From: a virus
Direction: 5' to 3' (one strand)
Length of the DNA: 42,175 bases
Virus record (IMG/VR): IMGVR_UViG_3300025834_000277
Coordinates: 1-42,175 of that record
Part shown: in pieces, positions 22,013 through 39,167 of the stretch
How the letters are laid out: each line of letters starts with the position of its first letter
How positions within the stretch are numbered: the first letter of the stretch is position 1
Program-made: the position numbers and the translations under genes
The notes under the pieces: generated by a model
What the model was told of the DNA's origin: nothing
The model's database searches: none
What the model saw: only the letters and a program-made list of their open reading frames with translations

Positions 22013-22303
22013 CTAGTGATCGCGGTTGATCACATTCAACCCGATCGTCCTGGCCGCATCCACCGTTATCAAATAATCAATCTGATGACTGGTTCTGAAG
22101 TGCCATCTATGCGGGATTTGCTTTGTGACCTCAAGGCGCAAGTAATCCTTATCTTCCATGAAGCCATGTTTAGCAATCTTGCTCTGCATCCAGCCCGAAA
22201 ACTGAATATAGACCTTGATGAATTTATGAACATCACGGGCATTAACCGTTTCTTGAAGAACGCCGCCAATTTGCTTCAGTTGAATAGGAATGAGTGGATG
22301 CAT
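22013..22303 (-). CDS. AntA-type antirepressor (N-terminal domain only)
   Basis: A 96-residue protein with the AntA/AntB antirepressor core: TVNARDVHKFIKV (from about residue 19), the FSGWMQSKIAKHGFMEDKDY segment and the later YLITVDAARTIG. Antirepressors bind or inactivate the prophage repressor. Full-length homologues often carry an extra C-terminal domain; this one stops after the AntA unit. The start at 22303 follows the stop of the preceding small gene by 7 bp; a larger open frame upstream overlaps other genes and is rejected. A C4-like RNA lies upstream in the same transcript. Confidence 0.78.
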   Translation of the reverse strand: MHPLIPIQLKQIGGVLQETVNARDVHKFIKVYIQFSGWMQSKIAKHGFMEDKDYLRLEVTKQIPHRWHFRTSHQIDYLITVDAARTIGLNVINRDH

Positions 22304-22310
22304 ATTGAAG

Positions 22311-22595
22311 TTACTTTTTGACCTGCTGTTGGGCAACCAAGTATTGCCCGCGTGCGTCCTGAAGCAGGTACTCGCAGGTTTGCATGTAGGAGCGGGAGTT
22401 CTCCAAGCTACTTTGTGCGGTGACGCGCTGGGCTTTGATGGAGAGGACGTTGTCGCACTTCCAGCGGCGTAAATTGATGATGCTGGACGGCCGGCGACCC
22501 GGTCCACGCTGTTGCTGGACGGGCTGCAGGGCAGCAGTAGGCAAAGGGATGATCTGTGCGGATGTACGCACAGGCAGTGAGAGGGATTGAGCCAT
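22311..22595 (-). CDS. Small phage protein in icd-like position
   Basis: A 94-residue basic protein with low-complexity N terminus (Pro/Gln/Thr), a GPGRRPSSIINLRRWKCDNV segment and a Gln-rich C terminus. Function unknown. It has the strongest ribosome site in this region (AGGAGG, 6 nt before ATG), and the bases immediately before that site (22608-22615) are complementary to part of the C4-like RNA upstream. In phages P1/P7 the gene at this position, between c4 and ant, is icd; the same regulatory logic may apply. Confidence 0.7.
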   Translation of the reverse strand: MAQSLSLPVRTSAQIIPLPTAALQPVQQQRGPGRRPSSIINLRRWKCDNVLSIKAQRVTAQSSLENSRSYMQTCEYLLQDARGQYLVAQQQVKK

Positions 22596-22651
22596 GATTG
22601 GCCTCCTAGTGGTTCGTTTTGCAACAACCACCGCACCCACTTCCAAATGAG

Positions 22652-22733
22652 GGCGGCAGCTCGAACAGGTTGGAAGACCGGGAACCACTTGCGTGAACCG
22701 GCAGGCCCTTGCGAGCCTCCCATTCGAGCCGCC
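22652..22733 (-). ncRNA. C4-like antisense RNA
   Basis: Read on the minus strand, this segment folds into a closed domain: an outer stem made of GGCGG/CCGCC and TCGAA/TTCGA encloses two hairpins, one with AGGC/GCCT ends and one with CCGG/CCGG ends. This layout, and phrases such as GGCGGCTCGAATGGGAGGCT, match my memory of C4 antisense RNAs, which control antirepressor operons in P1/P7-like prophages. The second hairpin carries AGTGGTTC (22689-22682). Its exact complement GAACCACT lies directly before the ribosome site of the next gene (22615-22608). True ends were not determined. Confidence 0.62.
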
Positions 22734-22756
22734 ATAAACTGGGGACTTGAACAACA

Positions 22757-22788
22757 AAGCCGCATGATCTGCGAAGAGACTGCGGCTT
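22757..22788 (-). other. Hairpin upstream of the C4-like RNA
   Basis: Perfect 8-bp stem AAGCCGCA (22788-22781 on the minus strand) / TGCGGCTT (22764-22757) with a 16-nt loop, followed by TGTTGTT. It may be a terminator-like element or part of a longer structured leader that is processed to give the C4 RNA. The stem is clear; the role is inferred. Confidence 0.5.
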
Positions 22789-22872
22789 GCGTCGCAGTGG
22801 TTACACGGGCTTCCAAACCCGATCCCGCTATCAAGCGAGACAGGTTGAGTGTACCCGGATTGCGGCGCGACA

Positions 22873-25593
22873 TCAAAACGGTGCATCGTCACCTTCCTGT
22901 TTAATCGGTCCGGTCACCTTGGGAGGTGGTACGGCCGTCATATCGTCATCCGTCTCAATCGGTGGCCAGTTAGAAGGCCTGACGTATCCCCAAGCCCTCC
23001 CGCCATTAACTCGTTTCTTGACCCGCTCCCAGCCCTCGTGATCAAGCCAGCCTCGGATCTGCGCCTCAAGGGCAGGCGTACTCTTCCCGGCATCGACTTG
23101 CAAGGCCAGGGTCAGCTGCGCGATCGTCACAAAGTTGGCCAGGTCATTCACGATGGCGGCAATCCCCGTTGCCACAGGTGGCCGGGTCAACACGTGCTGC
23201 AACTCGGACTGCACCGCTGTTTCAAGCAGCCGGCTTTCCTGCATCGGTGCGAACAGACGCTTTTCTGCATCCGGTGTCGGTGTGAACGCCACGCCCTGCT
23301 CGTACAACTCAAACGCTTCAGCCAGCAGTTGATCGCGGTACTTGATCAACCACTCGGTGTTGATCACATGCTTGACCGGCACCGGCCAGAAGCGCCGATT
23401 ACCAGTACGGTCGCGCAGATAAGTGTTTTCGTTGGTCGTGCCCACCAAAATGCACTGGCGCGCAAAGCTGCCCACCGTTGCGCCATAGGCCACGCGGTAC
23501 CGGTCCACCTTGCTGCTGATAAACGCTTTGATCGCGCCAATGTCGGATTTACTGAAATGCGTCATCTCAGCAATCTCGTACACCCACAGGCCTTGCACTT
23601 GTTCCTGCGCTTCCTTTCCGCGACCCACCTCAAACGGTGTATCGCTGTAATACTTCGTTCCGCCCAGAATCTCCACCATGGTCGACTTGCGCAGACCGCC
23701 CAAGCCTTCCAGCACTGGGCAATAGTCAAACTTGCAGCCGGGCTGCATCACCCGGTTAACCATGCCCAGCACCCAACAACGGCCCACAATCTGTAAATAC
23801 TCCAGCATGGCTGGGCTCAATGAATCGGGCGACTCGCCCAGCACATGTACCAGCCAGTTCGTCAGGCGCGGCTTCTTGTCCCACACCAGGCCCTGCAACA
23901 TCTCGCGTATCGGGTGAAAGCGCCGGGTATGCGCCACCGTCTGGATCGCTTCCATCAGGGCTGCCCGGGCAATGCTGGGCAGACCATAGGTATCGGTCAG
24001 GTACTTGCCCAGCATCAGATCCACCGCGTCGGTCACATCGCCCACCTGCGAGTGCGGCCAAGGCCACAGCGTGCGGCTTTGCATGTTGTTGCTCAGTTCG
24101 TTGTAAGCCAGCACCGGGGTCAAGATCGGGTCACGCTCAAGGATCAAGATCACCATTTTGCGTGATGCCATCCAACACTTTTTCTCTTTGTTGTAATACG
24201 GCGCAAGCCAGTCCGGAACCTGCCGACCAGCAATGAACGTGAAGCCACAGTCATCCGCGCCTTCAGTGTCAACGAGGCTATCGATTTTTTTCGCTGTGCT
24301 TTTGTCCGCCGCTGTTGCTGGCACATCAGTGCCATCGCCCAAGGGCAAGGCAAACGCCTGCCCAAAGAAGCCCAGCACGCGCTCACCAGTCCAGCCGTTG
24401 GTAGTGATGGCGTCGGCACAGTCCCAGCCCGCCGGCACAGCCAGCGGCTCAGGGATGGGTAGCAGCTGCACGGTGCAACTATGCTCGGCACGCAACAGCG
24501 CACCAATGCCCAGCATCGCCGCCATGCCAGGTTGTTTGGCCACCGGCAGCAGCGGCTTACATCTGGCTGCCAACTCGCATGCTGTATCACCAACGAGACG
24601 GCGATCGTTAGCAGTAATTTGCCCGCCTATGCCATCCAGCTGCTGCAAGGCTTGTGCCACAAGCGTGTCGCGCTCCTTCTTGCTCAGCTTCTCGCGGTGG
24701 GCGTCACAGTCCGGCCACAGCAACACGGTGCAGCTGGCCAGCCAGGACCAGTCCGCCTTCTTCCAGCCGTTGCAGCCACCCGACCAGCTCGCCACCAGGT
24801 AGACGCCCGGTGCGTGTGCTGTCAACAGCGCCTGCAGGATGTCGGCCTTCTTTTCACCCTCCACCAGGATGACCGTCGGCAAAGGCCCGCATGACTCCAC
24901 GCCCAGCATCCCTGCGGGCGACACCTTGCCAGGGAAATACAAGGGCCGGGGCGCATCCCACTGCTTCCAGTGCCAGCGGCTGGCTCCATCACGGGCCGAG
25001 GTACACCAGGTGTAAGGCAGTGTTTCTTTGCCGCCGTCGCTGGTGCGAAAGCGCACCACGTAGCCCATCAAGGCGCCGTCGATCTCGTAAGCAGCCGTGT
25101 GTTCGATTTCTTCCAGTGTTCGGTACTGGTGTTTGAAAGTAGCAGCAGGCGCATGCTCTGGCACCGGCACCACCGTGCACCAGCCTTCGTCTGTCTTGCG
25201 GGCCACTGGTACAGCCGCTGGTACATCGCGCACCGGCCTTACCACTGGAGTTGTATCACTGCGTGCATGCTGCACGCCGGCCACGTCTTCCAGGCCTTCT
25301 TCACGCGCCAGCTGCAGTGCGCCCTTGCCCATGCTCAGATCATGGATGGCCGCGTACAGGCTCACCAGATCGGCGCCACCCTCACCCGTAGCAAAGTCGC
25401 CCCACTTGCCGTTGGTTAAATTAACCGAGCAGCTGGTGCCCTCACCGCCCGACAGGGAGCCGCACACATATTCATGGCCCTTGACCACGCCACCCGGCAG
25501 CCACATCGGCACCAGCTGGCCAGCGCGAGGCAGCAGGGCTTCAGCCAGCGCCACAAACTTAATCGGCGGCAACGGTGCCCGCTCAGCCGTCAT
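22873..25593 (-). CDS. Primase-helicase, TOPRIM plus VapE (VirE) domain
   Basis: A 906-residue replication protein. The N-terminal 100 residues hold a primase-type region (YEVCGSLSGG-like, then WGDFATGEGGADLVSLY). A TOPRIM domain is marked by VILVEGEKKADI (about residue 238) and LLWPDCDAH (about 290). The C-terminal part is a VapE/VirE-like superfamily ATPase with GLGGLRKST as Walker A (about residue 628), WVYEIAEMTHFSKSD as Walker B region, and GTTNENTYLRDRTGNRRFWP as the conserved sensor/arginine segment. Such proteins initiate and drive phage DNA replication. It is transcribed with the CII-like gene from the Cro side. Confidence 0.87.
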   Translation of the reverse strand: MTAERAPLPPIKFVALAEALLPRAGQLVPMWLPGGVVKGHEYVCGSLSGGEGTSCSVNLTNGKWGDFATGEGGADLVSLYAAIHDLSMGKGALQLAREEGLEDVAGVQHARSDTTPVVRPVRDVPAAVPVARKTDEGWCTVVPVPEHAPAATFKHQYRTLEEIEHTAAYEIDGALMGYVVRFRTSDGGKETLPYTWCTSARDGASRWHWKQWDAPRPLYFPGKVSPAGMLGVESCGPLPTVILVEGEKKADILQALLTAHAPGVYLVASWSGGCNGWKKADWSWLASCTVLLWPDCDAHREKLSKKERDTLVAQALQQLDGIGGQITANDRRLVGDTACELAARCKPLLPVAKQPGMAAMLGIGALLRAEHSCTVQLLPIPEPLAVPAGWDCADAITTNGWTGERVLGFFGQAFALPLGDGTDVPATAADKSTAKKIDSLVDTEGADDCGFTFIAGRQVPDWLAPYYNKEKKCWMASRKMVILILERDPILTPVLAYNELSNNMQSRTLWPWPHSQVGDVTDAVDLMLGKYLTDTYGLPSIARAALMEAIQTVAHTRRFHPIREMLQGLVWDKKPRLTNWLVHVLGESPDSLSPAMLEYLQIVGRCWVLGMVNRVMQPGCKFDYCPVLEGLGGLRKSTMVEILGGTKYYSDTPFEVGRGKEAQEQVQGLWVYEIAEMTHFSKSDIGAIKAFISSKVDRYRVAYGATVGSFARQCILVGTTNENTYLRDRTGNRRFWPVPVKHVINTEWLIKYRDQLLAEAFELYEQGVAFTPTPDAEKRLFAPMQESRLLETAVQSELQHVLTRPPVATGIAAIVNDLANFVTIAQLTLALQVDAGKSTPALEAQIRGWLDHEGWERVKKRVNGGRAWGYVRPSNWPPIETDDDMTAVPPPKVTGPIKQEGDDAPF

Positions 25594-27121: not shown

Positions 27122-27559
27122 TCAAGCCACTCCCGTCTCTGGAGATTGAAACGGTGGGCCTTCTGCAGCCCGGCGATCAAGATCAATCGGCAAGTCCTGC
27201 GCCCGGCGATTGGCATGGCGGCGGACAACGCCTGTACGGAGAACGCCGACCTCAGAGATCGCGGCATCAACTGCTACGGTTTCAGCAGCAGCCTGCGCAA
27301 TATTGGCGGGGGCTTTAGCCAGTTCAGGCCAGTATTTATGCCAGTCATCTGGACGCAGATCCTTCCGGGTAACAGTGCCCTTAGTGGCCTGTTCAATGGC
27401 AAGGCAGTGCTCGACCGGGATACCACGCACTTTCCAATTCCCGATTGCAGCCACCGACACGCCAAGCAGATCAGCAAGAATTTTCCGTCCATCGACCAGT
27501 CGAGCCGCTGCATCGAGGGCTTGCGCAGAAGACGAATAAGAGGGGTTAGTGATTTCCAT
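27122..27559 (-). CDS. Cro-like regulator, YdaS family
   Basis: A 145-residue protein with a YdaS/Cro-type helix-turn-helix (RKILADLLGVSVAAIGNWKV, about residues 25-44), followed by RGIPVEHCLAIEQAT and LRPDDWHKYWPEL. The C-terminal 60 residues are Ala/Arg-rich and less conserved. It is divergent from the CI-like gene, with operators between them. GAGG lies only one base before the ATG, so translation may be leaderless or use a weak site. Confidence 0.8.
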   Translation of the reverse strand: MEITNPSYSSSAQALDAAARLVDGRKILADLLGVSVAAIGNWKVRGIPVEHCLAIEQATKGTVTRKDLRPDDWHKYWPELAKAPANIAQAAAETVAVDAAISEVGVLRTGVVRRHANRRAQDLPIDLDRRAAEGPPFQSPETGVA

Positions 27560-27568
27560 GCCTCAATA

Positions 27569-27621
27569 TAACACGTATCGTGTTAATAATCTAACACCAC
27601 GTGTTTACACTTTTTGTGTTG
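27569..27621. promoter_or_regulatory. Operator cluster between repressor and Cro genes
   Basis: Site 1 is a perfect 17-bp palindrome, TAACACGTATCGTGTTA (27569-27585). Site 3, TTACACTTTTTGTGTTG (27605-27621), follows the same 7-3-7 plan with mismatches. Between them an overlapping imperfect site has AACAC (27593-27597) and GTGTT (27601-27605) arms. Matching sites occur again at 29281-29322. The cluster fills the 73-bp gap between divergent regulator genes, as in lambda OR. Confidence 0.8.
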
Positions 27622-27632
27622 AATCACACGTA

Positions 27633-28124
27633 ATGAAAACGATTGGTGAAAGAATTCGACAAGCCCGTGAAGCGCACAAGATGAGCGGGGAAGCCCTCGC
27701 CAAAAAGGTGGGTTACAAAAATCAATCGGCCATCGGAAATCTTGAAAATCGAGTCGGTGGCACTGGCGGAAGCAAACTTGGCAGCATTGCCGATGCACTA
27801 AATGTCCCGCTTGAGTGGCTTATGCGCGGGCCAGACAATGACAATATTCCGTTTCTCCCTGGCAACGCGTATCACGGCACTGAGGTCAATACCACCGTAA
27901 GAGAATCTGGCTCCAGCACAAATGTGGTGACCATCGGTACGGATTCACGACCTGTAGCTGCCCTTGATCCTTGGACACTCGAAGCGATCGAGATCATGTC
28001 AAAGTTGAAGGAACATGAAAAGCAGGGCGCACTCGCCAACTTGAGAACCTATGTCTACAACTTGGGCCCACCCCGCGACGGCCAAGCTCTACCAATGGCC
28101 AGTCAAAAAAATGGAGCCTCGTGA
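27633..28124 (+). CDS. CI-like prophage repressor without peptidase domain
   Basis: A 163-residue repressor. Residues about 1-70 form an HTH_3-type domain (MKTIGERIRQAREAHKMSGE, then LAKKVGYKNQSAIGNLENRV). The rest has no S24/LexA-like Ser-Lys self-cleavage motif; near residues 115-145 is a short helical stretch (LDPWTLEAIEIMSKLKEHEK) that may support dimerisation. The start at 27633 aligns the HTH as in homologues; no clear ribosome site is present, so it may be translated from a leaderless message, as lambda cI is from PRM. A longer open frame to 27549 would run across the operators and is rejected. Confidence 0.82.
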   Translation: MKTIGERIRQAREAHKMSGEALAKKVGYKNQSAIGNLENRVGGTGGSKLGSIADALNVPLEWLMRGPDNDNIPFLPGNAYHGTEVNTTVRESGSSTNVVTIGTDSRPVAALDPWTLEAIEIMSKLKEHEKQGALANLRTYVYNLGPPRDGQALPMASQKNGAS

Positions 28125-31424: not shown

Positions 31425-31814
31425 ATGCCCACCCAACTTCAAACCACCCCAATCTCCACCCTGCCCGCCTTGGGCGGCGCGCTGGACGGCGGCGTCTTCG
31501 CCGGCGTCACCACCCGCCAAGACGGCGTGCACTGCGCTGTTATCCGATTGCCGGAAAACGGCACCAAGCTTACCTGGAGGAAAGCAGTGGCCTGGGCCAA
31601 GAAACAAGGCGGCGAACTGCCTACCCGTACTGTAGCCGCCCTGTTGTTTGCCAACGTGAAGGCCACCCTGCCCCCTGGCTGGCACTGGACCAGCGAAGAG
31701 GATGACGCCTCTTACGCCTGGGATTGCCTCTTCGACTACGGCGACCAGTTCAGCATCCCCAAGAGCTACAAGGGCTCGGCTGTTGCCGTCCGCTTGATTC
31801 CTATCACTGCTTGA
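31425..31814 (+). CDS. DGR target protein 1 (DUF1566 / C-type-lectin-like)
   Basis: A 129-residue protein with a beta-rich N terminus and the DUF1566-type pattern TWRKAVAWAKKQGGELPTR (about residues 50-68), then FANVK, WHWTSEEDDAS and SYKGSAVAVRLI at the end. Members adopt the formylglycine-enzyme/C-type-lectin fold used by many DGR targets. Its last part, residues about 94-123, is encoded by variable repeat 1. Against the template residues NCNFNNGNQNNNH it reads DCLFDYGDQFSIP. No signal peptide or membrane segment is visible. GGAG lies 5 nt before the ATG. It is paralogous to target protein 2. Confidence 0.88.
   Translation: MPTQLQTTPISTLPALGGALDGGVFAGVTTRQDGVHCAVIRLPENGTKLTWRKAVAWAKKQGGELPTRTVAALLFANVKATLPPGWHWTSEEDDASYAWDCLFDYGDQFSIPKSYKGSAVAVRLIPITA
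31705..31793 (+). repeat. DGR variable repeat 1 (VR1)
   Basis: 89 bp that align without gaps to the template 32879-32967. I count 12 differences, 11 at template adenines (template positions 18, 24, 25, 30, 33, 39, 45, 46, 49, 52, 55). The one other change is G to A at position 66, in the 3' conserved part. The last 23 bp are identical to the template. Confidence 0.92.
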
Positions 31815-31845
31815 TTCTTCAATCCTTTTTTCACAGGAGCCAACT

Positions 31846-32301
31846 ATGCCCACCATCACCCTAGAGGCCGTCCAGGCCAAACAAACCGAACTGACCGAGA
31901 TGATTCAGCAGCTGCAAAAGACCCAGCAAATTCGCGTCATCAAGATCACCGAAGACACCATTGAATTGCGCCCAGGTGAGCACTACTCGGGCGCAGTGCT
32001 GGACGCGGACGGCGGACACCTTCACCACCTGGTGCTGATGGCGCCCCGCCCCAACACCAAACTCACGCAGCAAGGTGCTATCGACTGGGCAGAAAGCGTC
32101 GATGGAGACTTGCCCGATCGTCAAGAGCAAGCCTTGCTCTACGCCAATTGCAAGCCACACCTGAAGCCTGAATGGCATTGGTCCAACGAAACACACAAGG
32201 ATGACGCCTCTTCCGCCTGGATTTGCCTCTTCAGCCACGGCGACCAGAGCTTCAGCCCCAAGAGCTACGAGGGCTCGGCTGTTGCCGTCCGCAGAGTCTG
32301 A
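31846..32301 (+). CDS. DGR target protein 2 (DUF1566 / C-type-lectin-like)
   Basis: A 151-residue paralogue of target 1. A helical N terminus (about residues 1-30, EAVQAKQTELTEMIQQLQKT) that target 1 lacks could oligomerise the protein. This is followed by LRPGEHYSGAVLDADGG, the DUF1566-like DWAESVDGDLPDRQEQALLY, and WHWSNETHKDDAS. Residues about 120-150 are encoded by variable repeat 2. Against template NCNFNNGNQNNNH it reads ICLFSHGDQSFSP. It ends directly after the repeat. AGGAG lies 6 nt before the ATG. No export signal is visible. Confidence 0.88.
   Translation: MPTITLEAVQAKQTELTEMIQQLQKTQQIRVIKITEDTIELRPGEHYSGAVLDADGGHLHHLVLMAPRPNTKLTQQGAIDWAESVDGDLPDRQEQALLYANCKPHLKPEWHWSNETHKDDASSAWICLFSHGDQSFSPKSYEGSAVAVRRV
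32204..32295 (+). repeat. DGR variable repeat 2 (VR2)
   Basis: 92 bp that align without gaps to the template 32879-32970. I count 12 differences, all at template adenines (positions 10, 19, 24, 25, 31, 33, 39, 46, 48, 49, 52, 55). From position 56 to the end (37 bp) it is identical to the template, consistent with an initiation-of-homing end. Confidence 0.93.
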
Positions 32302-32342
32302 TTCCTTTAGTCCTTCAATCCTTTTGAACTGAGCCCGCCACC

Positions 32343-32705
32343 ATGGCATTGCATACCGAACTCCCGATCCACCGCACCGGCGTGCGCCTGCTTGATCTCG
32401 CGATCAGGGCGCAGGTGCAAATGCCGCGCACCGTCAAGCGCGCGCTGGGCGAAAAGATCACTCAGCACTGCGTGGAAATGCTGGATCTGATGGCCCTGGC
32501 CAACGCCACCCAACGCGAGACCCGCGCCGGCCACATCGACCAGTTACTCACCCGCCAGCGCGCCATGACGGTACTGCTGCGGGTCAGCCACGACGCCCGG
32601 TATATCTCGCCCAAGCTGTGGGCAGATTCCATCGAGCTACTGGGGAGTATCGGCAGGCAGGCTGGTGGTTGGATCAAAACTGCGAACAGGGCGCCTGCTG
32701 TATGA
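32343..32705 (+). CDS. avd: Avd-like accessory variability protein (four-helix)
   Basis: A 120-residue all-helical protein with features of Avd/four-helix-bundle proteins: TGVRLLDLAIRAQVQMPRTV near residue 12, QLLTRQRAMTVLLRVSHDA (about 67-85) and RYISPKLWADSIELLGSIGR (about 86-105), ending in QAGGWIK. Avd forms a pentamer that binds the template RNA and reverse transcriptase in characterised DGRs. It lies between the targets and the template/RT as in the Bordetella phage element. No strong ribosome site is visible. Its stop overlaps the first ATG inside the RT frame. Confidence 0.82.
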   Translation: MALHTELPIHRTGVRLLDLAIRAQVQMPRTVKRALGEKITQHCVEMLDLMALANATQRETRAGHIDQLLTRQRAMTVLLRVSHDARYISPKLWADSIELLGSIGRQAGGWIKTANRAPAV

Positions 32706-34060
32706 CGGTCAAGGCCCTCATGCCCGTGCGCACAGTGAATCTGGTCGCGCCGCTGGCCCACAAGGCCACCGACATGCACACCACGGAGACCGCTGCACCA
32801 GTGCAGGCCCGGCCCGGTGCAGCCTCTCACCTGATCGGCTACGGCCTTCGGGAGAGAGGCCTCAATAGCGCGATAGATACGCCTCTTACGCCTGGAATTG
32901 CAACTTCAACAACGGCAACCAGAACAACAACCACAAGAGCTACGAGGGCTCGGCTGTTGCCGTCCGCAGATCCACACCTGTTCCACCAGCTGGTGCAGGC
33001 CTACCTTGACTGCCGCCGCACCAAGCGCAATAGCGCCAGTGCGCTGGCATTCGAGGCCCAGGCTGAGCACAACCTCTACCAGCTCTATGAAGAGCTGGCT
33101 TCTGGTACCTACCAGCCAGGCGGCTCCGTCTGTTTTGTCATCACCCACCCCAAACCGCGCGAAGTGTGGGCGGCGCGCATTCGCGACCGCATCGTGCACC
33201 ACCTGCTCTACAACTACATTGCGCCGCGCTTTCATGCGCGCTTCGTCGCCGACAGCTGCGCCTGTATCCCCGGCCGCGGCACGCTCTACGCCGCCAAGCG
33301 GCTGGAGCACCAGGTGCGAAGCTACACCCGCAACTGGAGCCAGCCGGCGCACTATCTCAAGTGCGATCTAGCCAACTTCTTCGTTAGCATCCACAAGACG
33401 GTAGTTCTGGAGCAGCTGCAGCGCCAGGTGACAGAGCCCTGGTGGATGGCCCTGGCCACGGTCATCCTGATGCACGACCCGCGCCACGATGTCGAGGTGC
33501 GCGGCACCCGCGCCGAGCTGGCCTTGGTGCCACCGCACAAAAGCCTGTTCAACGCACCCCAGGGCTACGGCCTGCCCATTGGCAACTTGAGCAGCCAGTT
33601 CTTTGCCAATGTGCTGTTGGACGATCTAGACCAGTTTGCCAAGCACCGCCTGCAGGCGCCCACCTACGTGCGCTATGTGGACGACTTCATTCTGTTGCAC
33701 GACAGTCCGCAGTGGCTCAACCAGGCACGACAGCAGATCGAATGCAAGCTGGACGAACTGCACCTGCAGCTCAACCCCCGCAAGACCATCCTGCAGCCCG
33801 TGGCACGCGGCATCGACTTTGTGGGCCACCTGATCCAGCCGTGGCGGCGCATCACCCGCCGCAAGACCGTGCACATGGCGCTGGAGCGCCTGCAGGACAT
33901 GCCCGCTGCAGATCTGCACCAGCCCGCCAACAGCTACTTCGGCCTGCTCCGGCAGGCGACCCATAGCCACCACGACCGCACCCGCGTTGCCAAGCTCATG
34001 CTGCAGCGTGGGCATGTGGTCAAGGGTGACATGACCAAGATTTATCGAAAGAAAGGTTAA
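32702..34060 (+). CDS. DGR reverse transcriptase
   Basis: A 452-residue reverse transcriptase. Catalytic residues are Asp in LKCDLANFFVSI (Asp222) and YVDD at about residues 325-328 (VRYVDDFILL). The GLPIGNLSSQFFANV stretch (about 290-304) is the DGR-type motif 4, and GIDFVGHLIQPWR follows. It would copy the template RNA with adenine-specific errors. The start at 32702 is favoured by the 4-bp overlap with avd; the conserved RT core begins only near 32970, after the template repeat. The first about 90 residues are therefore encoded across the template in another frame, giving a Thr-rich segment. A start farther downstream cannot be excluded. Confidence 0.9.
   Translation: MTVKALMPVRTVNLVAPLAHKATDMHTTETAAPVQARPGAASHLIGYGLRERGLNSAIDTPLTPGIATSTTATRTTTTRATRARLLPSADPHLFHQLVQAYLDCRRTKRNSASALAFEAQAEHNLYQLYEELASGTYQPGGSVCFVITHPKPREVWAARIRDRIVHHLLYNYIAPRFHARFVADSCACIPGRGTLYAAKRLEHQVRSYTRNWSQPAHYLKCDLANFFVSIHKTVVLEQLQRQVTEPWWMALATVILMHDPRHDVEVRGTRAELALVPPHKSLFNAPQGYGLPIGNLSSQFFANVLLDDLDQFAKHRLQAPTYVRYVDDFILLHDSPQWLNQARQQIECKLDELHLQLNPRKTILQPVARGIDFVGHLIQPWRRITRRKTVHMALERLQDMPAADLHQPANSYFGLLRQATHSHHDRTRVAKLMLQRGHVVKGDMTKIYRKKG
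32879..32970 (+). repeat. DGR template repeat (TR)
   Basis: Adenine-rich template of 92 bp. In the frame used by the targets it encodes one AAT and seven AAC codons in the variable part (NCNFNNGNQNNNH), the usual way a DGR avoids stop codons and reaches many residues. It lies between avd and the RT core and within the RT open frame. Its 3' GC-rich end (about 36 bp) is nearly the same as in both variable repeats. A short CGGC-TGTT-GCCG hairpin lies in that end. Confidence 0.93.
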
Positions 34061-34104: not shown

Positions 34105-36300
34105 ATGAAAGAATATTTAACCGAAACCGGCCAGATCTTGCCCGAGGTGGACCCGGTCGAAGTACTCGATGCGGATGAGTTTGCCAATCTGCAGCTGACC
34201 GCCATCGTCACCAGCTTGACCAATCCACGCACCATCTTTGATGCCGTCAAGCTGGCCGAGCTGTCTTCCAGTATCAAGGCCAGCGGCGTGCATCAACCGG
34301 TGCTGGTGCGGCCGCTGCCCGGCAGCCGGTTGGCCGACACCTTTGACCTGCACCATGCCCGCTTTGGTAGCAGAGGCATAGAGCGGCCGACGCATGAACT
34401 GGTGTGCGGTGAGCGCCGCTACCGCGCCTGCTTAATAGCCGGCGTCAAGCGTATCCCCGCCCTGATCCGGGACCTGACAGACCACCAGGTGCTGGAGATT
34501 CAGATTGTCGAAAACCTGCAGCGCGACGATCTCAGCGAGCTGGAAGAAGCCGTGGGCTACGAACAGCTAATGACGCTCAGCGGCATCAGTGCCGATGAGG
34601 TTGGCGTCAAAATTTGCAAGAGCCGGTCCTACGTCTACGCCCGTTTGAAGCTGCTGGACCTGACCAGCGATGTGAAGACCAGCCTGCGTTCCGGCGTGAT
34701 TGATGCCAGCCGCGCCCTATTGTTGGCCCGCATCCCCGACCCCACGCTGCAACTCAAGGCGCTGGCAGAGATAACGCATAAAAATTACGACGGCGATCTG
34801 TCCATGAGCTACCGCAGTGCGGCGGCCCATGTGCAGCGCAATTACATGCTGAAGCTGGATACAGCCCGCTTCAAGATCACAGACGCCACGCTGGTACCGG
34901 ATGCTGGATCTTGCAAAGCGTGCGCCAAACGTACCGGTCATGAACCGGACCTGTTCGAGGACGTCAAAGGTGCAGATGTCTGCACCGACCCGCCCTGTTT
35001 CCACCGCAAGGAAGACGCGCACACCGCCCAGCTACTCAAGTCCGCACACGAACATGGCCAGCTGGTAATTGACGGGCGCGAGGCCAAGGCCTTGATGCCC
35101 AACAGTTGGAATGGGATCGAGGGCTATTTACGCCTGGACGATCCAAACGACAGCCCATCCGACCAGCCACTGCGCAAACTGCTGGGCAAGCAACTTGACC
35201 AGGACGAAGTGCAAATCACGCTCATTGCCAACCCGCACAAGGCCGGCGAACTGATTGCAGTGCTGCCGAGCTCCAAAGTGGCTGAGCTGCTCAAAGCCAA
35301 GGGCCATAAGGAGGCGGCTGAGCGCATCGACAAGAGCATGGAGGCCGACAAAAAGCTTGATGCTGTCAACGCAAAAAAGGAAGCCTCCGATGCCTACGAG
35401 CAAGGCTGGCGCAATACGGTGCTGACGCGCACCTGGAAGGAAATCAATATTGAGGAAGCGTTTGACGTCTCCAACGATGTGTACCGCCACGTGGCCATGC
35501 ACTATGCCAGCGCTTGCAATACCGACCGCGCCAAACAGCTGTGCAAGGTGCTGGAGCTGGGCAAGGTCGCCCCCAAAGACGGCCTGCTGGACTACGTGAA
35601 ATCCTGCGAATTCCCCGCCCGGGTGCTGCAGCTGCTGGTGATGCACACGGACGTGGAATATCGCAGCTGGATGCCCGAGGATTACAAAGCCAACAAAGGC
35701 CTGTTACTGGTGGCCGCTGAGTACCAGGTCGATATTGACGCGATAAAGGCCGAAATCAAGGGCCAGATGCGACTCAAGAAACCAGTTACCCCTAACACCC
35801 CTGCTGCGCTGGCTATCGCTAGCGCGGGGGGGCCGGTGGCTGGGGGCCAGGGGGTCAAAGGCCCGGACGCGAAAATAAACGCCGCCCCGCTGCGCAAGCG
35901 CAAACTATCTGCCGCCGAAGCCCAAGCCGCGATCGCGGATGCGATGCAGGATCAGGAGACCGATTCAGGCGCCGCTGACGCGTCACAAGGCAACGACGCA
36001 GACAGTAGCCAGCCAGTAGCAGGCGCAGGCACGGTTGCCAGTGCTGGCGCACTCGCCCCCGTGCCCGCCCCCGCTCTGTCTGTGGGCGTGCTCGTAGTCG
36101 TAACGACCGATGCCGATCTGCTGCCCGTCACGCAGCATAAATGGGTAGGCAAAGCGGGCGCGGTCTCCCAAAAACTACAAGGCTCCAACTGGATGGTGAC
36201 ATTCAAAGGCCGGACCGGCGGCATGGCCAGTTTTGACAGCAGCCTGTTATCGCCACAGCCGAGCCAAAAGCAACACAACGATCGGGTAAAAAAATCATGA
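34105..36300 (+). CDS. ParB/RepB-like partition-type protein
   Basis: A 731-residue protein. The ParB N-terminal domain shows GERRYRAC (residues 102-109) and IVENLQRDDLSELEEA (134-149), then a HTH region including SRSYVYARLKLLDL. A Cys cluster follows near residues 271-303 (CKAC, then VCTDPPCF). The C-terminal third is Ala/Pro-rich linker ending in a small beta-rich domain (WVGKAGAVSQKL, NWMVTFKGRTG). Prophage ParB relatives may act as DNA-binding or CTP-dependent spreading factors; no ParA partner is visible here. AAAGGA lies 8 nt before the ATG. Confidence 0.8.
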   Translation: MKEYLTETGQILPEVDPVEVLDADEFANLQLTAIVTSLTNPRTIFDAVKLAELSSSIKASGVHQPVLVRPLPGSRLADTFDLHHARFGSRGIERPTHELVCGERRYRACLIAGVKRIPALIRDLTDHQVLEIQIVENLQRDDLSELEEAVGYEQLMTLSGISADEVGVKICKSRSYVYARLKLLDLTSDVKTSLRSGVIDASRALLLARIPDPTLQLKALAEITHKNYDGDLSMSYRSAAAHVQRNYMLKLDTARFKITDATLVPDAGSCKACAKRTGHEPDLFEDVKGADVCTDPPCFHRKEDAHTAQLLKSAHEHGQLVIDGREAKALMPNSWNGIEGYLRLDDPNDSPSDQPLRKLLGKQLDQDEVQITLIANPHKAGELIAVLPSSKVAELLKAKGHKEAAERIDKSMEADKKLDAVNAKKEASDAYEQGWRNTVLTRTWKEINIEEAFDVSNDVYRHVAMHYASACNTDRAKQLCKVLELGKVAPKDGLLDYVKSCEFPARVLQLLVMHTDVEYRSWMPEDYKANKGLLLVAAEYQVDIDAIKAEIKGQMRLKKPVTPNTPAALAIASAGGPVAGGQGVKGPDAKINAAPLRKRKLSAAEAQAAIADAMQDQETDSGAADASQGNDADSSQPVAGAGTVASAGALAPVPAPALSVGVLVVVTTDADLLPVTQHKWVGKAGAVSQKLQGSNWMVTFKGRTGGMASFDSSLLSPQPSQKQHNDRVKKS

Positions 36301-36797: not shown

Positions 36798-37060
36798 ATA
36801 AGAAAACAAAAGCCTACCAGGGTAGCGCTCAAGACATTGGGTGCGATGTGTTTATTAATCACGTCATGCCATTTATTCGGGCTGCATCAAAGCGTATGCC
36901 GGATTGTGAACTTGCTGAACTTTATGCAGGGTTTTTTGCAGGCGCCTGCGGGTCAATGGCCGCTGATTTTGGCAAGGAAGCAGCCAAGATCATGATTGAT
37001 ACGGTGGCCGCACAGTTTGATGACGTGGCCCAAGAAATCAATGCGGGGATGATGCAATGA
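36794..37060 (+). CDS. Small conserved phage protein
   Basis: An 88-residue helical protein: RMPDCELAELYAGFFAGACG (about residues 34-53) and SMAADFGKEAAKIMIDTVA. The pattern is seen in small early genes of several phages, function unknown. It shows 4-bp overlaps on both sides. Confidence 0.62.
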   Translation: MNKKTKAYQGSAQDIGCDVFINHVMPFIRAASKRMPDCELAELYAGFFAGACGSMAADFGKEAAKIMIDTVAAQFDDVAQEINAGMMQ

Positions 37061-37770
37061 AAGAACGTCCAATCCTTTTCAATGGACCGATGGTTCGGGC
37101 GCTGCTGGATGACAGCAAGACTAAGACGCGGCGGGTAATGAAGCCGCAGATGGTCTACGGTGACGTGTGCGGCTTGTTTGAATCATGGTATCTGCCGAAA
37201 GGCAACGACGGCGGCATCCTCTGGCTGAATGCCAAGGCTCAAATTCTCTCCATGTGCCCTTACGGCCAGCCCGGTGACAAGCTTTGGGTGCGGGAGACGT
37301 TCCAGTATCGCGGCGCAAGCTATGACGGCGATGGCATCGAGGATGCAGATTGGTTTCGTTGCTACGGCAAGGGAGATAGTTGGGATCCGGAATTCCCGTA
37401 CGGATGGGGGCCATCTAGACACATGAATGTGCGAGCAATGGTAGAGCCGGATGAGCAAGAGGGCGAAGGAATCACAGGCTGGGTTACAAAACGTATCCCC
37501 AGCATCCACATGCCCCGCTGGGCCAGCCGCATCACGCTGGAGATTGTCAGCGTGCGCGTTGAGCAGCTACAGGACATCAGCGAGGCCGATGCACTAGCCG
37601 AAGGGATCGACGCTGAAAAAGCAAAGCTCACGATGTCATCCATCGGGATGAATGACATTGTTGGCCCTATTGCTGAATACAGCACCCTTTGGGAATCCAT
37701 CAACGGACCCAGCTCATGGGCTGTGAACCCGTGGGTCTGGGTAGTCGAATTTAAAAGGATCGAATCATGA
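37057..37770 (+). CDS. ASCH-like / phage morphogenetic-type protein
   Basis: A 237-residue protein beginning MKERPILFNGPMVRALLDDS and KTKTRRVMKP, with PYGQPGDKLWVRETF (about residues 68-82), IPSIHMPRWASRITLEIVSV (about 147-166) and NPWVWVVEFKRI at the end. This is the pattern of the ASCH-related family often annotated as phage morphogenetic proteins; ASCH domains are thought to bind RNA or modified nucleotides. The early location argues against a structural role. Confidence 0.75.
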   Translation: MKERPILFNGPMVRALLDDSKTKTRRVMKPQMVYGDVCGLFESWYLPKGNDGGILWLNAKAQILSMCPYGQPGDKLWVRETFQYRGASYDGDGIEDADWFRCYGKGDSWDPEFPYGWGPSRHMNVRAMVEPDEQEGEGITGWVTKRIPSIHMPRWASRITLEIVSVRVEQLQDISEADALAEGIDAEKAKLTMSSIGMNDIVGPIAEYSTLWESINGPSSWAVNPWVWVVEFKRIES

Positions 37771-38048
37771 TCTCCCCAATTATGGATTCCCCCGCCGTCG
37801 CTGCACTGCTGAAATGTTCAGAGCGAACCGTCGAGGATCATGCCCGGTCCGGGCGCCTGCCGGCAGTCAAGTTTGGGGATGGCTGGATGTTTCCCAGCGA
37901 CGCCTTGCTGCGGGCTGTCAACCAATTGGCCGAGGAAGAGGCGGCCAAACGCTCAGCACCCGTCAAGCCTGTAGCGGTCAAACAGGTCATAGACAAAAAA
38001 CGATCTACCCGCCCCAACCTTTCGCTGCTATCCCAGGCGGGCGCTTAA
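37767..38048 (+). CDS. Excisionase-like HTH protein
   Basis: A 93-residue protein with a MerR/excisionase-type DNA-binding domain: SPAVAALLKCSERTVEDHAR and SGRLPAVKFGDGWMFPSDAL (about residues 8-47). It is the last gene of the plus-strand operon and overlaps the integrase 3' end by 21 bp in convergent orientation, which fits a directionality factor. Its expression from the repressed operon would restrict excision to induction. Confidence 0.7.
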   Translation: MISPIMDSPAVAALLKCSERTVEDHARSGRLPAVKFGDGWMFPSDALLRAVNQLAEEEAAKRSAPVKPVAVKQVIDKKRSTRPNLSLLSQAGA

Positions 38049-39167
38049 GTCCTCGCCGCGTAGGGATGCGTAGCGCAGCATCATCTTAAAGTCAGACCAG
38101 CCCATGATTTTGCAAACTTCAATCTCCGAGAATACCCAGCGCCCCGCTGGGTCACGCATCTCAACCCAGCGGCAGGTTGCCTCGTGGCGAAGGTCGTGTT
38201 CGGTGAAATCATCTACCTGGGCGAAACTAAACAGCGTTGAAAACCGCTGAGATAGCCGCCCAGTGGCCAGTTTTTTGTCTTCTTTCGTTCCATTCCAAAA
38301 CGGAAACAACAACCCAACCCGGCTGCGGCAGCGTGCCGCCAATAGCTCACGAAGCTCAATTACCAGCGGAACAACTCGCGGCTTTATTGCCCCGCGGTGA
38401 CCCTTGCTTCCTGCCACACGCAGGACCCATCGAGCCAGATCAACCTGGTCGGCGCGCAAACTGTATGCCTCGCTCAGTCGCAAGCCAGTATTCACGATTA
38501 ATTCAAAGAGCAAACTGAAATCGTCATCGACCTCTAGCGATCGCTCCCGCCCCTCGCGCCTCTCCCCCGCCAGAGCTGAGCGGACCCGCGCGTATTCTTG
38601 AGGCCACAAACGCCGGTCACGCTGCACATCACGCTTGACAATAAGATCTGACGCCTGAAGCAGCGCAGCCTCCCGATCGGTTGCTTGGCTGTAACCACGC
38701 GGCATCAAGCGCAAGGGGTTGGCTGGGGCCACATCATTTTTCAAGCGCCAATAGCCGTCGATCACCCGCGCCAAACTCTCTACCCGCTTGCGGATTGTGC
38801 TTGGAGCCAGGTGCTGCACTGTTTTCAGATCGACCACCCAAGCGTCAGCCCATGCGGCCGTGACCGACAGCAAGCGAACTGCGCCGACTGACTTATTGAG
38901 CAAGTTGAGTGTCGACCGGTCACTGGGGGCAACGGATGAATCGGCCAGGCAGTCCTCAATCAGGCGTTTGAGCAGCGGATTGTCCCCGCGCTTCCCCGCC
39001 TCCAGCAGCTCCACTGGAACAATACCCCGATCCAGCAGAGACTCCAGCTGCACGCCATAGGCCCGTGCCTCAGCCTCATCTGTGAACGTGTCGAAAAATG
39101 GTTTGGGAAGGAGCTTGTGCACAATACGAAGTTGCCACTTCCCGGAGCGCTCTTGAATGGATGCCAT
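38028..39167 (-). CDS. int: Tyrosine integrase
   Basis: A 379-residue phage integrase. An arm-binding and core-binding N terminus (about 1-200) precedes the catalytic domain. The active-site set is visible: Arg230 in NTGLR, Lys255 in VAGSKGHRG, HxxR at His324-Arg327 (EHDLRHEA), Trp357 in MGWSD and nucleophile Tyr366 in MLRYASL. It acts at attP near its own start; the host target is probably the tRNA region 200 bp to the right. The gene reads leftward, away from that end. Confidence 0.9.
   Translation of the reverse strand: MASIQERSGKWQLRIVHKLLPKPFFDTFTDEAEARAYGVQLESLLDRGIVPVELLEAGKRGDNPLLKRLIEDCLADSSVAPSDRSTLNLLNKSVGAVRLLSVTAAWADAWVVDLKTVQHLAPSTIRKRVESLARVIDGYWRLKNDVAPANPLRLMPRGYSQATDREAALLQASDLIVKRDVQRDRRLWPQEYARVRSALAGERREGRERSLEVDDDFSLLFELIVNTGLRLSEAYSLRADQVDLARWVLRVAGSKGHRGAIKPRVVPLVIELRELLAARCRSRVGLLFPFWNGTKEDKKLATGRLSQRFSTLFSFAQVDDFTEHDLRHEATCRWVEMRDPAGRWVFSEIEVCKIMGWSDFKMMLRYASLRGEDLSARLG

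What the first reader, a model, noticed from the sequence alone, without database searches (positions are those of the whole stretch)
31425..34060. Complete diversity-generating retroelement with two targets in a prophage early operon
Seen: two variable repeats and one template align without gaps; 23 of 24 substitutions are at template adenines (11 of 12 in VR1, 12 of 12 in VR2). Established: adenine-specific mutagenic homing, Avd and a GxPIGNLxSQ/YxDD reverse transcriptase define DGRs. Inference: the element is active or recently active. It is unusual in that the targets are small DUF1566-like proteins away from the tail genes.
Basis: partly seen in the sequence, partly recalled or inferred. 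Interest (0 to 1): 0.93.

Follow-up and report, generated by a model that had tools for sequence, protein, structure and literature searches.

The report
Phage mutation cassette with new address
A bacterial virus carries a complete, recently used machine that rewrites the binding surfaces of two of its own small proteins; its relatives share a distinct template RNA and an apparently undescribed repeated DNA tag beside each rewritten gene, and the rewritten proteins are probably not parts of the virus tail.

Summary
Confirmed: a complete diversity-generating retroelement (DGR). Over 89 ungapped bases VR1 differs from the TR at 12 positions (11 adenines) and VR2 at 12 (all adenines). Avd and a DGR-type RT are present. 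Across 90 unique TR-VR pairs from 51 related loci, 42% of template adenines are changed but only 0.3-0.4% of C, G or T. Two sister-lineage elements identical over 2,321 flanking bases differ in their VRs at 14 template adenines and 1 other base, so the lineage is recently active. Three features set the lineage apart from the BPP-1 prototype. (1) The structured RNA is Rfam RT-15 and lies 5' of the TR, not 3'. (2) The window's clade lacks the hairpin normally found after the VR and carries a tandem 8-nt repeat there (76 of 80 non-redundant flanks across RT-15 DGRs, 0.5% of background, absent after the TR). (3) The TR lies inside the RT reading frame, usually opened by an ATGA overlap with avd. 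The targets have a C-type lectin fold and no signal peptide; I favour a non-virion binding role (about 60%).

The parts
31425..31814 (+). target gene 1 (129 aa, small C-type-lectin-like protein)
   Evidence: conserved in 43 of 46 relatives
31705..31793 (+). VR1 (ends with GTCCGC, candidate IMH)
   Evidence: 11 of 12 substitutions at template A
31794..31830 (+). 8-nt-period repeat 3' of VR1 (contains CTTCAATCCTTTT at 31817-31829); candidate cis homing site
   Evidence: In this single flank lag-8 matching is modest (0.36); the signal comes from the family.
31846..32301 (+). target gene 2 (151 aa; N-terminal helix plus C-type-lectin fold)
   Evidence: AlphaFold mean pLDDT 95.3; fold matches Bd2740 and Lcl C-terminal domains
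32204..32292 (+). VR2 (ends with GTCCGC)
   Evidence: 12 of 12 substitutions at template A
32293..32326 (+). 8-nt-period repeat 3' of VR2 (CTTCAATCCTTTT at 32313-32325)
   Evidence: lag-8 match 0.50, lag-16 0.55
32343..32705 (+). avd, accessory variability determinant (120 aa)
   Evidence: PF22296 43.8 bits, phrog_3206 2.6e-23
32689..32880 (+). RT-15 structured RNA (RF03018), immediately 5' of TR
   Evidence: 168.4 bits, gathering score 82
32879..32967 (+). template repeat (TR); identity to VR2 continues to 32970
32702..34060 (+). RT reading frame opened by ATGA overlap with the avd stop; it runs through RT-15 and TR; folded RT domain from about 32960
   Evidence: RVT_1 and phrog_1423; where translation really starts is not settled

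Best explanation
This is a phage-borne DGR of a distinct lineage (call it the RT-15 type). A transcript of the operon carries the RT-15 RNA and TR upstream of the RT core. Avd and RT use this RNA; RT copies the TR from near the GTCCGC end and misreads template adenines (A-specific change shown by sequence; the steps inferred from BPP-1). The cDNA replaces VR1 or VR2, which keep the same GTCCGC end. A tandem 8-nt repeat just 3' of each VR, absent 3' of the TR, probably marks the recipient in place of the hairpin used by BPP-1 (inferred). The diversified products are two small soluble C-type-lectin-fold proteins made from the operon between repressor and integrase, most likely binding proteins working in the infected or lysogenic cell rather than tail fibres (inferred, about 60%).
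For: A-specific change. Recent activity. RT and Avd identity. RT-15 ends at the TR start in 7 loci. Searched blind by RNA alone, RT-15 passed the cut-off in 9 of 399 Burkholderiales genomes; with one second copy in another genome, all 10 places are directly followed by a TR whose VRs are changed almost only at A. BPP-1's own conserved RNA, Phage_DGR RF03022, lies 3' of its TR. Synonymous divergence is low through RT-15, TR and about 50 nt beyond, then normal. 8-nt array: lag-8 identity 0.49 against 0.28 shuffled (z 25), 76 of 80 non-redundant flanks against 56 of 11,162 background segments; TR flanks 0.21; lag-8 of at least 0.45 in 70% of VR flanks against 2% of AT-matched ORF-end flanks; also at remote third targets. 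Hairpins in 1 of 83 flanks of the window's clade against 19% background. Cassette independent of morphotype. Lectin fold. No membrane segment.
Against: No experiment shows homing by this copy. The array's role is inferred from position and conservation only; in VR1 of the window alone the 8-nt period is weak. A virion role for the targets is not excluded. The RT frame is closed upstream of the TR in 3 of 10 blind RT-15 loci, so translation through the RNA is not universal.
Confidence: 0.8

Rival explanations
1. The targets are virion proteins after all: small lectins that decorate the tail or head and change host attachment, as in BPP-1, despite their gene position.
For: Most viral targets of DGR clades 1, 4 and 6 were annotated as tail structure proteins (PMC8144416); the lectin fold is the usual receptor-binding scaffold; Magia's authors suggest host-range change.
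Against: The same cassette sits in phages with contractile and non-contractile tails whose structural proteins are not related to the window's (LPPA56 portal and terminase excepted). Genes lie between repressor and integrase on the strand opposite to the structural genes. No tail-attachment domain was seen in the 129-151 aa proteins.
Confidence: 0.3
2. The 8-nt repeat is not a homing signal but a feature of translation end and restart between target genes, or simply inherited by gene duplication.
For: It overlaps the target stop codon, and the targets are duplicated paralogues.
Against: Other gene ends of the same loci, AT-matched, lack it (2% against 70%). Flanks below 80% identity keep the period. 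It follows remote third targets with different neighbours. The common unit TTCAATCC holds no stop codon.
Confidence: 0.3
3. RT is translated only from a start inside or after the TR; the open frame through RT-15 and TR is incidental to RNA conservation.
For: The 83-residue leader is unfolded in the model (pLDDT below 50). Codon-position signal in RT-15 is weak (p = 0.05 on 30 representatives). The frame is closed upstream in L034, L071, L073 and L077.
Against: 41 of 51 loci have an in-frame ATGA overlap with avd, and the RT frame is stop-free through RNA and TR in 46 of 51 while the third frame is in 8. L023 has no ATG, GTG or TTG between TR start and RT core.
Confidence: 0.45
4. A decayed or domesticated element: a fossil no longer moving.
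For: One non-A change in VR1, the G>A near the VR end.
Against: All reading frames intact; VRs of the near-identical sister elements differ at template A; VR2 shows no non-A change.
Confidence: 0.05

Closest known systems
Bordetella phage BPP-1 DGR (mtd/avd/brt)
   Same: Avd, RT, TR, A-specific VR change, C-terminal lectin-fold VR; RT is the closest solved structure (8ub7)
   Different: BPP-1: Avd abuts TR, 144 nt structured spacer 3' of TR (Phage_DGR RF03022), hairpin after VR, tail-protein target. Here: RT-15 RNA 5' of TR, TR inside RT frame, 8-nt array and no hairpin, two small non-tail targets.
Burkholderia phage Magia DGR (and Shewanella vB_Sb_QDWS, Pseudomonas Cruim01, LPPA56, Haboob)
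   Same: Same RT lineage (59-63% identical over the core), RT-15 RNA, two or three small targets, position between repressor and integrase side
   Different: No ATGA avd/RT overlap; different repeat unit and sometimes an added hairpin; different structural modules
DiGReF structural group 3 DGRs (TR overlapping the annotated RT ORF; PMC3521204)
   Same: TR overlaps the RT reading frame
   Different: That paper classes architecture only; no RNA element, start-codon coupling or VR-flank repeat was described in the section read
Rfam RT-15 (RF03018)
   Same: The window's RNA is a full-length member
   Different: Its Rfam entry as shown carries no DGR label; here it is tied to TRs in 10 of 10 loci found by the RNA alone

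Membership tests
Diversity-generating retroelement | TR and VR differing almost only at template adenines | tested here: met
Diversity-generating retroelement | DGR-type RT (GxPIGNLxSQ motif, YxDD), closest to DGR RTs | tested here: met
   GLPIGNLSSQ and YVDD; 8ub7 1.8e-45
Diversity-generating retroelement | Accessory protein Avd | tested here: met
Diversity-generating retroelement | VR at the C-terminus of a C-type-lectin-fold target | tested here: met
   (target 2 modelled; target 1 by sequence relation only)
Diversity-generating retroelement | Observed RT-dependent mutagenic homing | not testable with these tools
   needs culture; indirect support
BPP-1-like DGR subtype | Phage_DGR RNA (RF03022) between TR and RT | tested here: not met
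   window scan shows RT-15 only; BPP-1 control hits RF03022
BPP-1-like DGR subtype | GC-rich hairpin with GRNA loop 3' of VR | tested here: not met
Rfam RT-15 (RF03018) | score above gathering cut-off | tested here: met
   168.4 against 82
Pfam Lcl_C (formerly DUF1566) | score above Pfam gathering cut-off | tested here: not met
   19.7 and 14.2 against 34.9; same fold by structure

The most novel reading that the evidence does not exclude
RT-15 DGRs are a separate homing class: template RNA scaffold 5' of the TR and within the RT coding frame, recipient sites recognised through tandem 8-nt repeats instead of hairpins, and products that are soluble diversified binding proteins used inside the cell (for example against host or rival-phage factors) by unrelated temperate phages.
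Probability: 0.3. Interest if true: 0.8.

Novelty: new variant of a known kind. Interest (0 to 1): 0.56.

Why it matters
DGR homing has mainly been worked out in one phage. A lineage with its RNA scaffold on the other side of the template and a repeat array instead of a hairpin makes two open questions testable: what primes cDNA synthesis and what marks the recipient gene. If the small targets act inside the cell, it would extend phage hypermutation beyond receptor switching.

Tried and rejected
An apparent 500-600 nt insertion in six RT matches (L008, L011-L014, L020) was a tblastn artefact from VR hits; rejected after mapping TRs. Codon-position bias as proof of translation of RT-15: ratio 1.47 on pairs, but only p = 0.05 on representatives, so not claimed. 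Universal ATGA start: rejected after loci L071, L073, L077. Sub-threshold RT-15 hits (L079, L080, L081) have no TR found and count as chance. Structural RNA 3' of TR as in BPP-1: synonymous divergence is back to normal about 50 nt after the TR and there is no RF03022 hit. Papers for RT-15 (PMC5737381), Wu 2018 (PMC5758913) and the BPP-1 RT-RNA structure were not held, so whether RT-15 was earlier linked to DGRs is unchecked. A first per-gene conservation table had a wrong denominator because alignment files were read as loci; it was redone with 46 loci.

Full report
Observation. TR 32879-32967, VR1 31705-31793 and VR2 32204-32292 align without gaps. VR1 differs at 12 positions, 11 of them template A; VR2 at 12, all template A. 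Hypergeometric p is 1.2e-6 and 2.2e-8. In the target frame the TR reads YAWNCNFNNGNQNNNHKSYEGSAVAVR, rich in AAC codons as usual for DGR templates (frame 2; the AAC rule is general knowledge).

Genes. 31425-31814 and 31846-32301 encode targets of 129 and 151 aa with the VR at the C-terminus. 32343-32705 is Avd and 32702-34060 the RT frame. The RT's best solved match is the BPP-1 DGR RT 8ub7 at 1.8e-45, the next a group II intron RT at 8e-14. The record is an IMG/VR virus record of 42,175 bases. Repressor (27549-28124, +), the DGR operon and integrase (38028-39167, -) occupy one side; terminase, portal, capsid and tail genes are on the minus strand. tRNAs and a Lon gene at the right end look like host flank.

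Relatives. One viral scan gave 40 loci, five of the nine best-covered matches among the phage records were examined, and one genome scan gave six Burkholderiales-type loci. With an A-tolerant diagonal search, 51 loci including the window gave 90 unique TR-VR pairs: A changed at 1062 of 2539, C 9 of 2822, G 7 of 1976, T 5 of 1236. The detection score is lenient to changes at A, so these rates carry some ascertainment, but the window result does not depend on it.

Activity. L004 and L005 are identical to L006 over 2,321 bases outside the VRs, and their TRs are identical; their VRs differ at 14 template A and 1 other position. L023 and L041 show 0 of 1,813 outside and 3 plus 1 inside. It shows recent activity in the sister lineage (RT 87% identical to the window), not in this very copy.

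RNA. Rfam RT-15 covers 32689-32880 at 168 bits and ends where the TR begins. The same junction holds in seven more loci. To avoid circularity I searched RT-15 alone in 399 Burkholderiales genomes: 9 genomes passed the cut-off (one of them is the Limnohabitans genome of L051, already known). Together with one more copy from a known host genome, all 10 places are followed at once by a TR with VRs changed almost only at A. In BPP-1 the conserved RNA is another family, Phage_DGR RF03022, on the 3' side of the TR, and Avd abuts the TR. Synonymous divergence in the window's clade is low from the ATGA to about 50 nt past the TR and normal after that. The RNA scaffold is therefore on the opposite side of the template.

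RT frame. In 41 of 51 loci the RT frame begins with an ATG inside an ATGA overlap with the avd stop, and it is stop-free through RT-15 and TR in 46 of 51, against 8 for the third frame. The encoded leader is predicted unfolded. Codon-position evidence is weak (p = 0.05), and three of the ten RNA-found loci have the frame closed. Translation through the template is plausible for the window, not shown. TR overlap with the RT ORF as such was classed before (PMC3521204).

VR flank. BPP-1 needs a GC-rich hairpin within 24 bp of the VR (PMC3240598). The window's flanks fold little or no better than shuffles while the BPP-1 flank does strongly, and hairpins are rarer in this clade (1 of 83) than in background (19%). 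Instead there is an 8-nt period: lag-8 identity 0.49 against 0.28 shuffled (z 25), lag-16 0.42 (z 13). A tandem unit TTBRDYNHTT occurs in 76 of 80 non-redundant flanks but 56 of 11,162 background segments, and the period is absent after the TR. Other gene ends with matched AT content lack it. It follows remote third targets too. In the window CTTCAATCCTTTT occurs exactly twice, 23 and 20 nt after the two VR ends (chance mean 0.10). The unit pattern was written after looking at the flanks; the lag scan over 2-17 nt was not tuned to a sequence. Bacteroidales and Gracilibacteria DGR relatives and BPP-1, which lack RT-15, show hairpins or no such period, but only six were looked at.

Targets. The model of target 2 (pLDDT 95.3) is a C-type-lectin-like domain with an N-terminal helix; best matches are Bd2740 C-terminal domain (Z 14.0, 2.0 A over 99 residues) and Lcl C-terminal domain (Z 12.9, 3.7 A over 113). 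Of 78 distinct targets none shows a convincing membrane segment by hydropathy. Magia has a tail sheath and QDWS baseplate genes; Cruim01 and Haboob look non-contractile. With these the window shares the DGR genes and almost nothing structural (LPPA56 portal and terminase excepted). In all, the cassette lies on the repressor-integrase side or beside the lysogeny genes. This argues against a dedicated tail part, but only virion proteomics can decide.

Known or new. The DGR is a member of a known kind, and small non-tail targets were noted for Magia (PMC7883833). The tie between RT-15 and DGR templates, its 5' position, and the 8-nt array in place of the hairpin were not found in the papers I could read; key papers were not held, so novelty of the RT-15 link is uncertain. 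I file it as a new variant of a known kind.

Noticed in passing
window 22649-22739 (-): C4 antisense RNA (RF01695, 53.6 bits) inside the antirepressor gene 22013-22876, as in the P1/P7 immunity system.
   Followed up: no
L016, L044, L045, L051, L053: Third, remote target genes about 2-9 kb from the TR, with A-limited VRs; most keep the same kind of 8-nt repeat in the flank.
   Followed up: partly
window 34105-36300 (+): 731-aa protein with a ParB N-terminal domain directly after the RT, kept in 18 of 46 relatives; role unknown.
   Followed up: no
phage records OK094664.1 and OP650936.1: Shewanella phage vB_Sb_QDWS and 'Hujiaoplasma phage zrk29-1' have the same length (47,902) and the same match, although the hosts named are unrelated; possibly one genome under two names.
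   Followed up: no
window 37057-37770 (+): Conserved phage protein of unknown function (phrog_874, 8.6e-71), also in Magia and Cruim01.
   Followed up: no
L034, L036, L037, L047, L076: Some RT-15 DGRs carry both the 8-nt repeat and a GC hairpin after the VR, a possible intermediate between the two types.
   Followed up: partly
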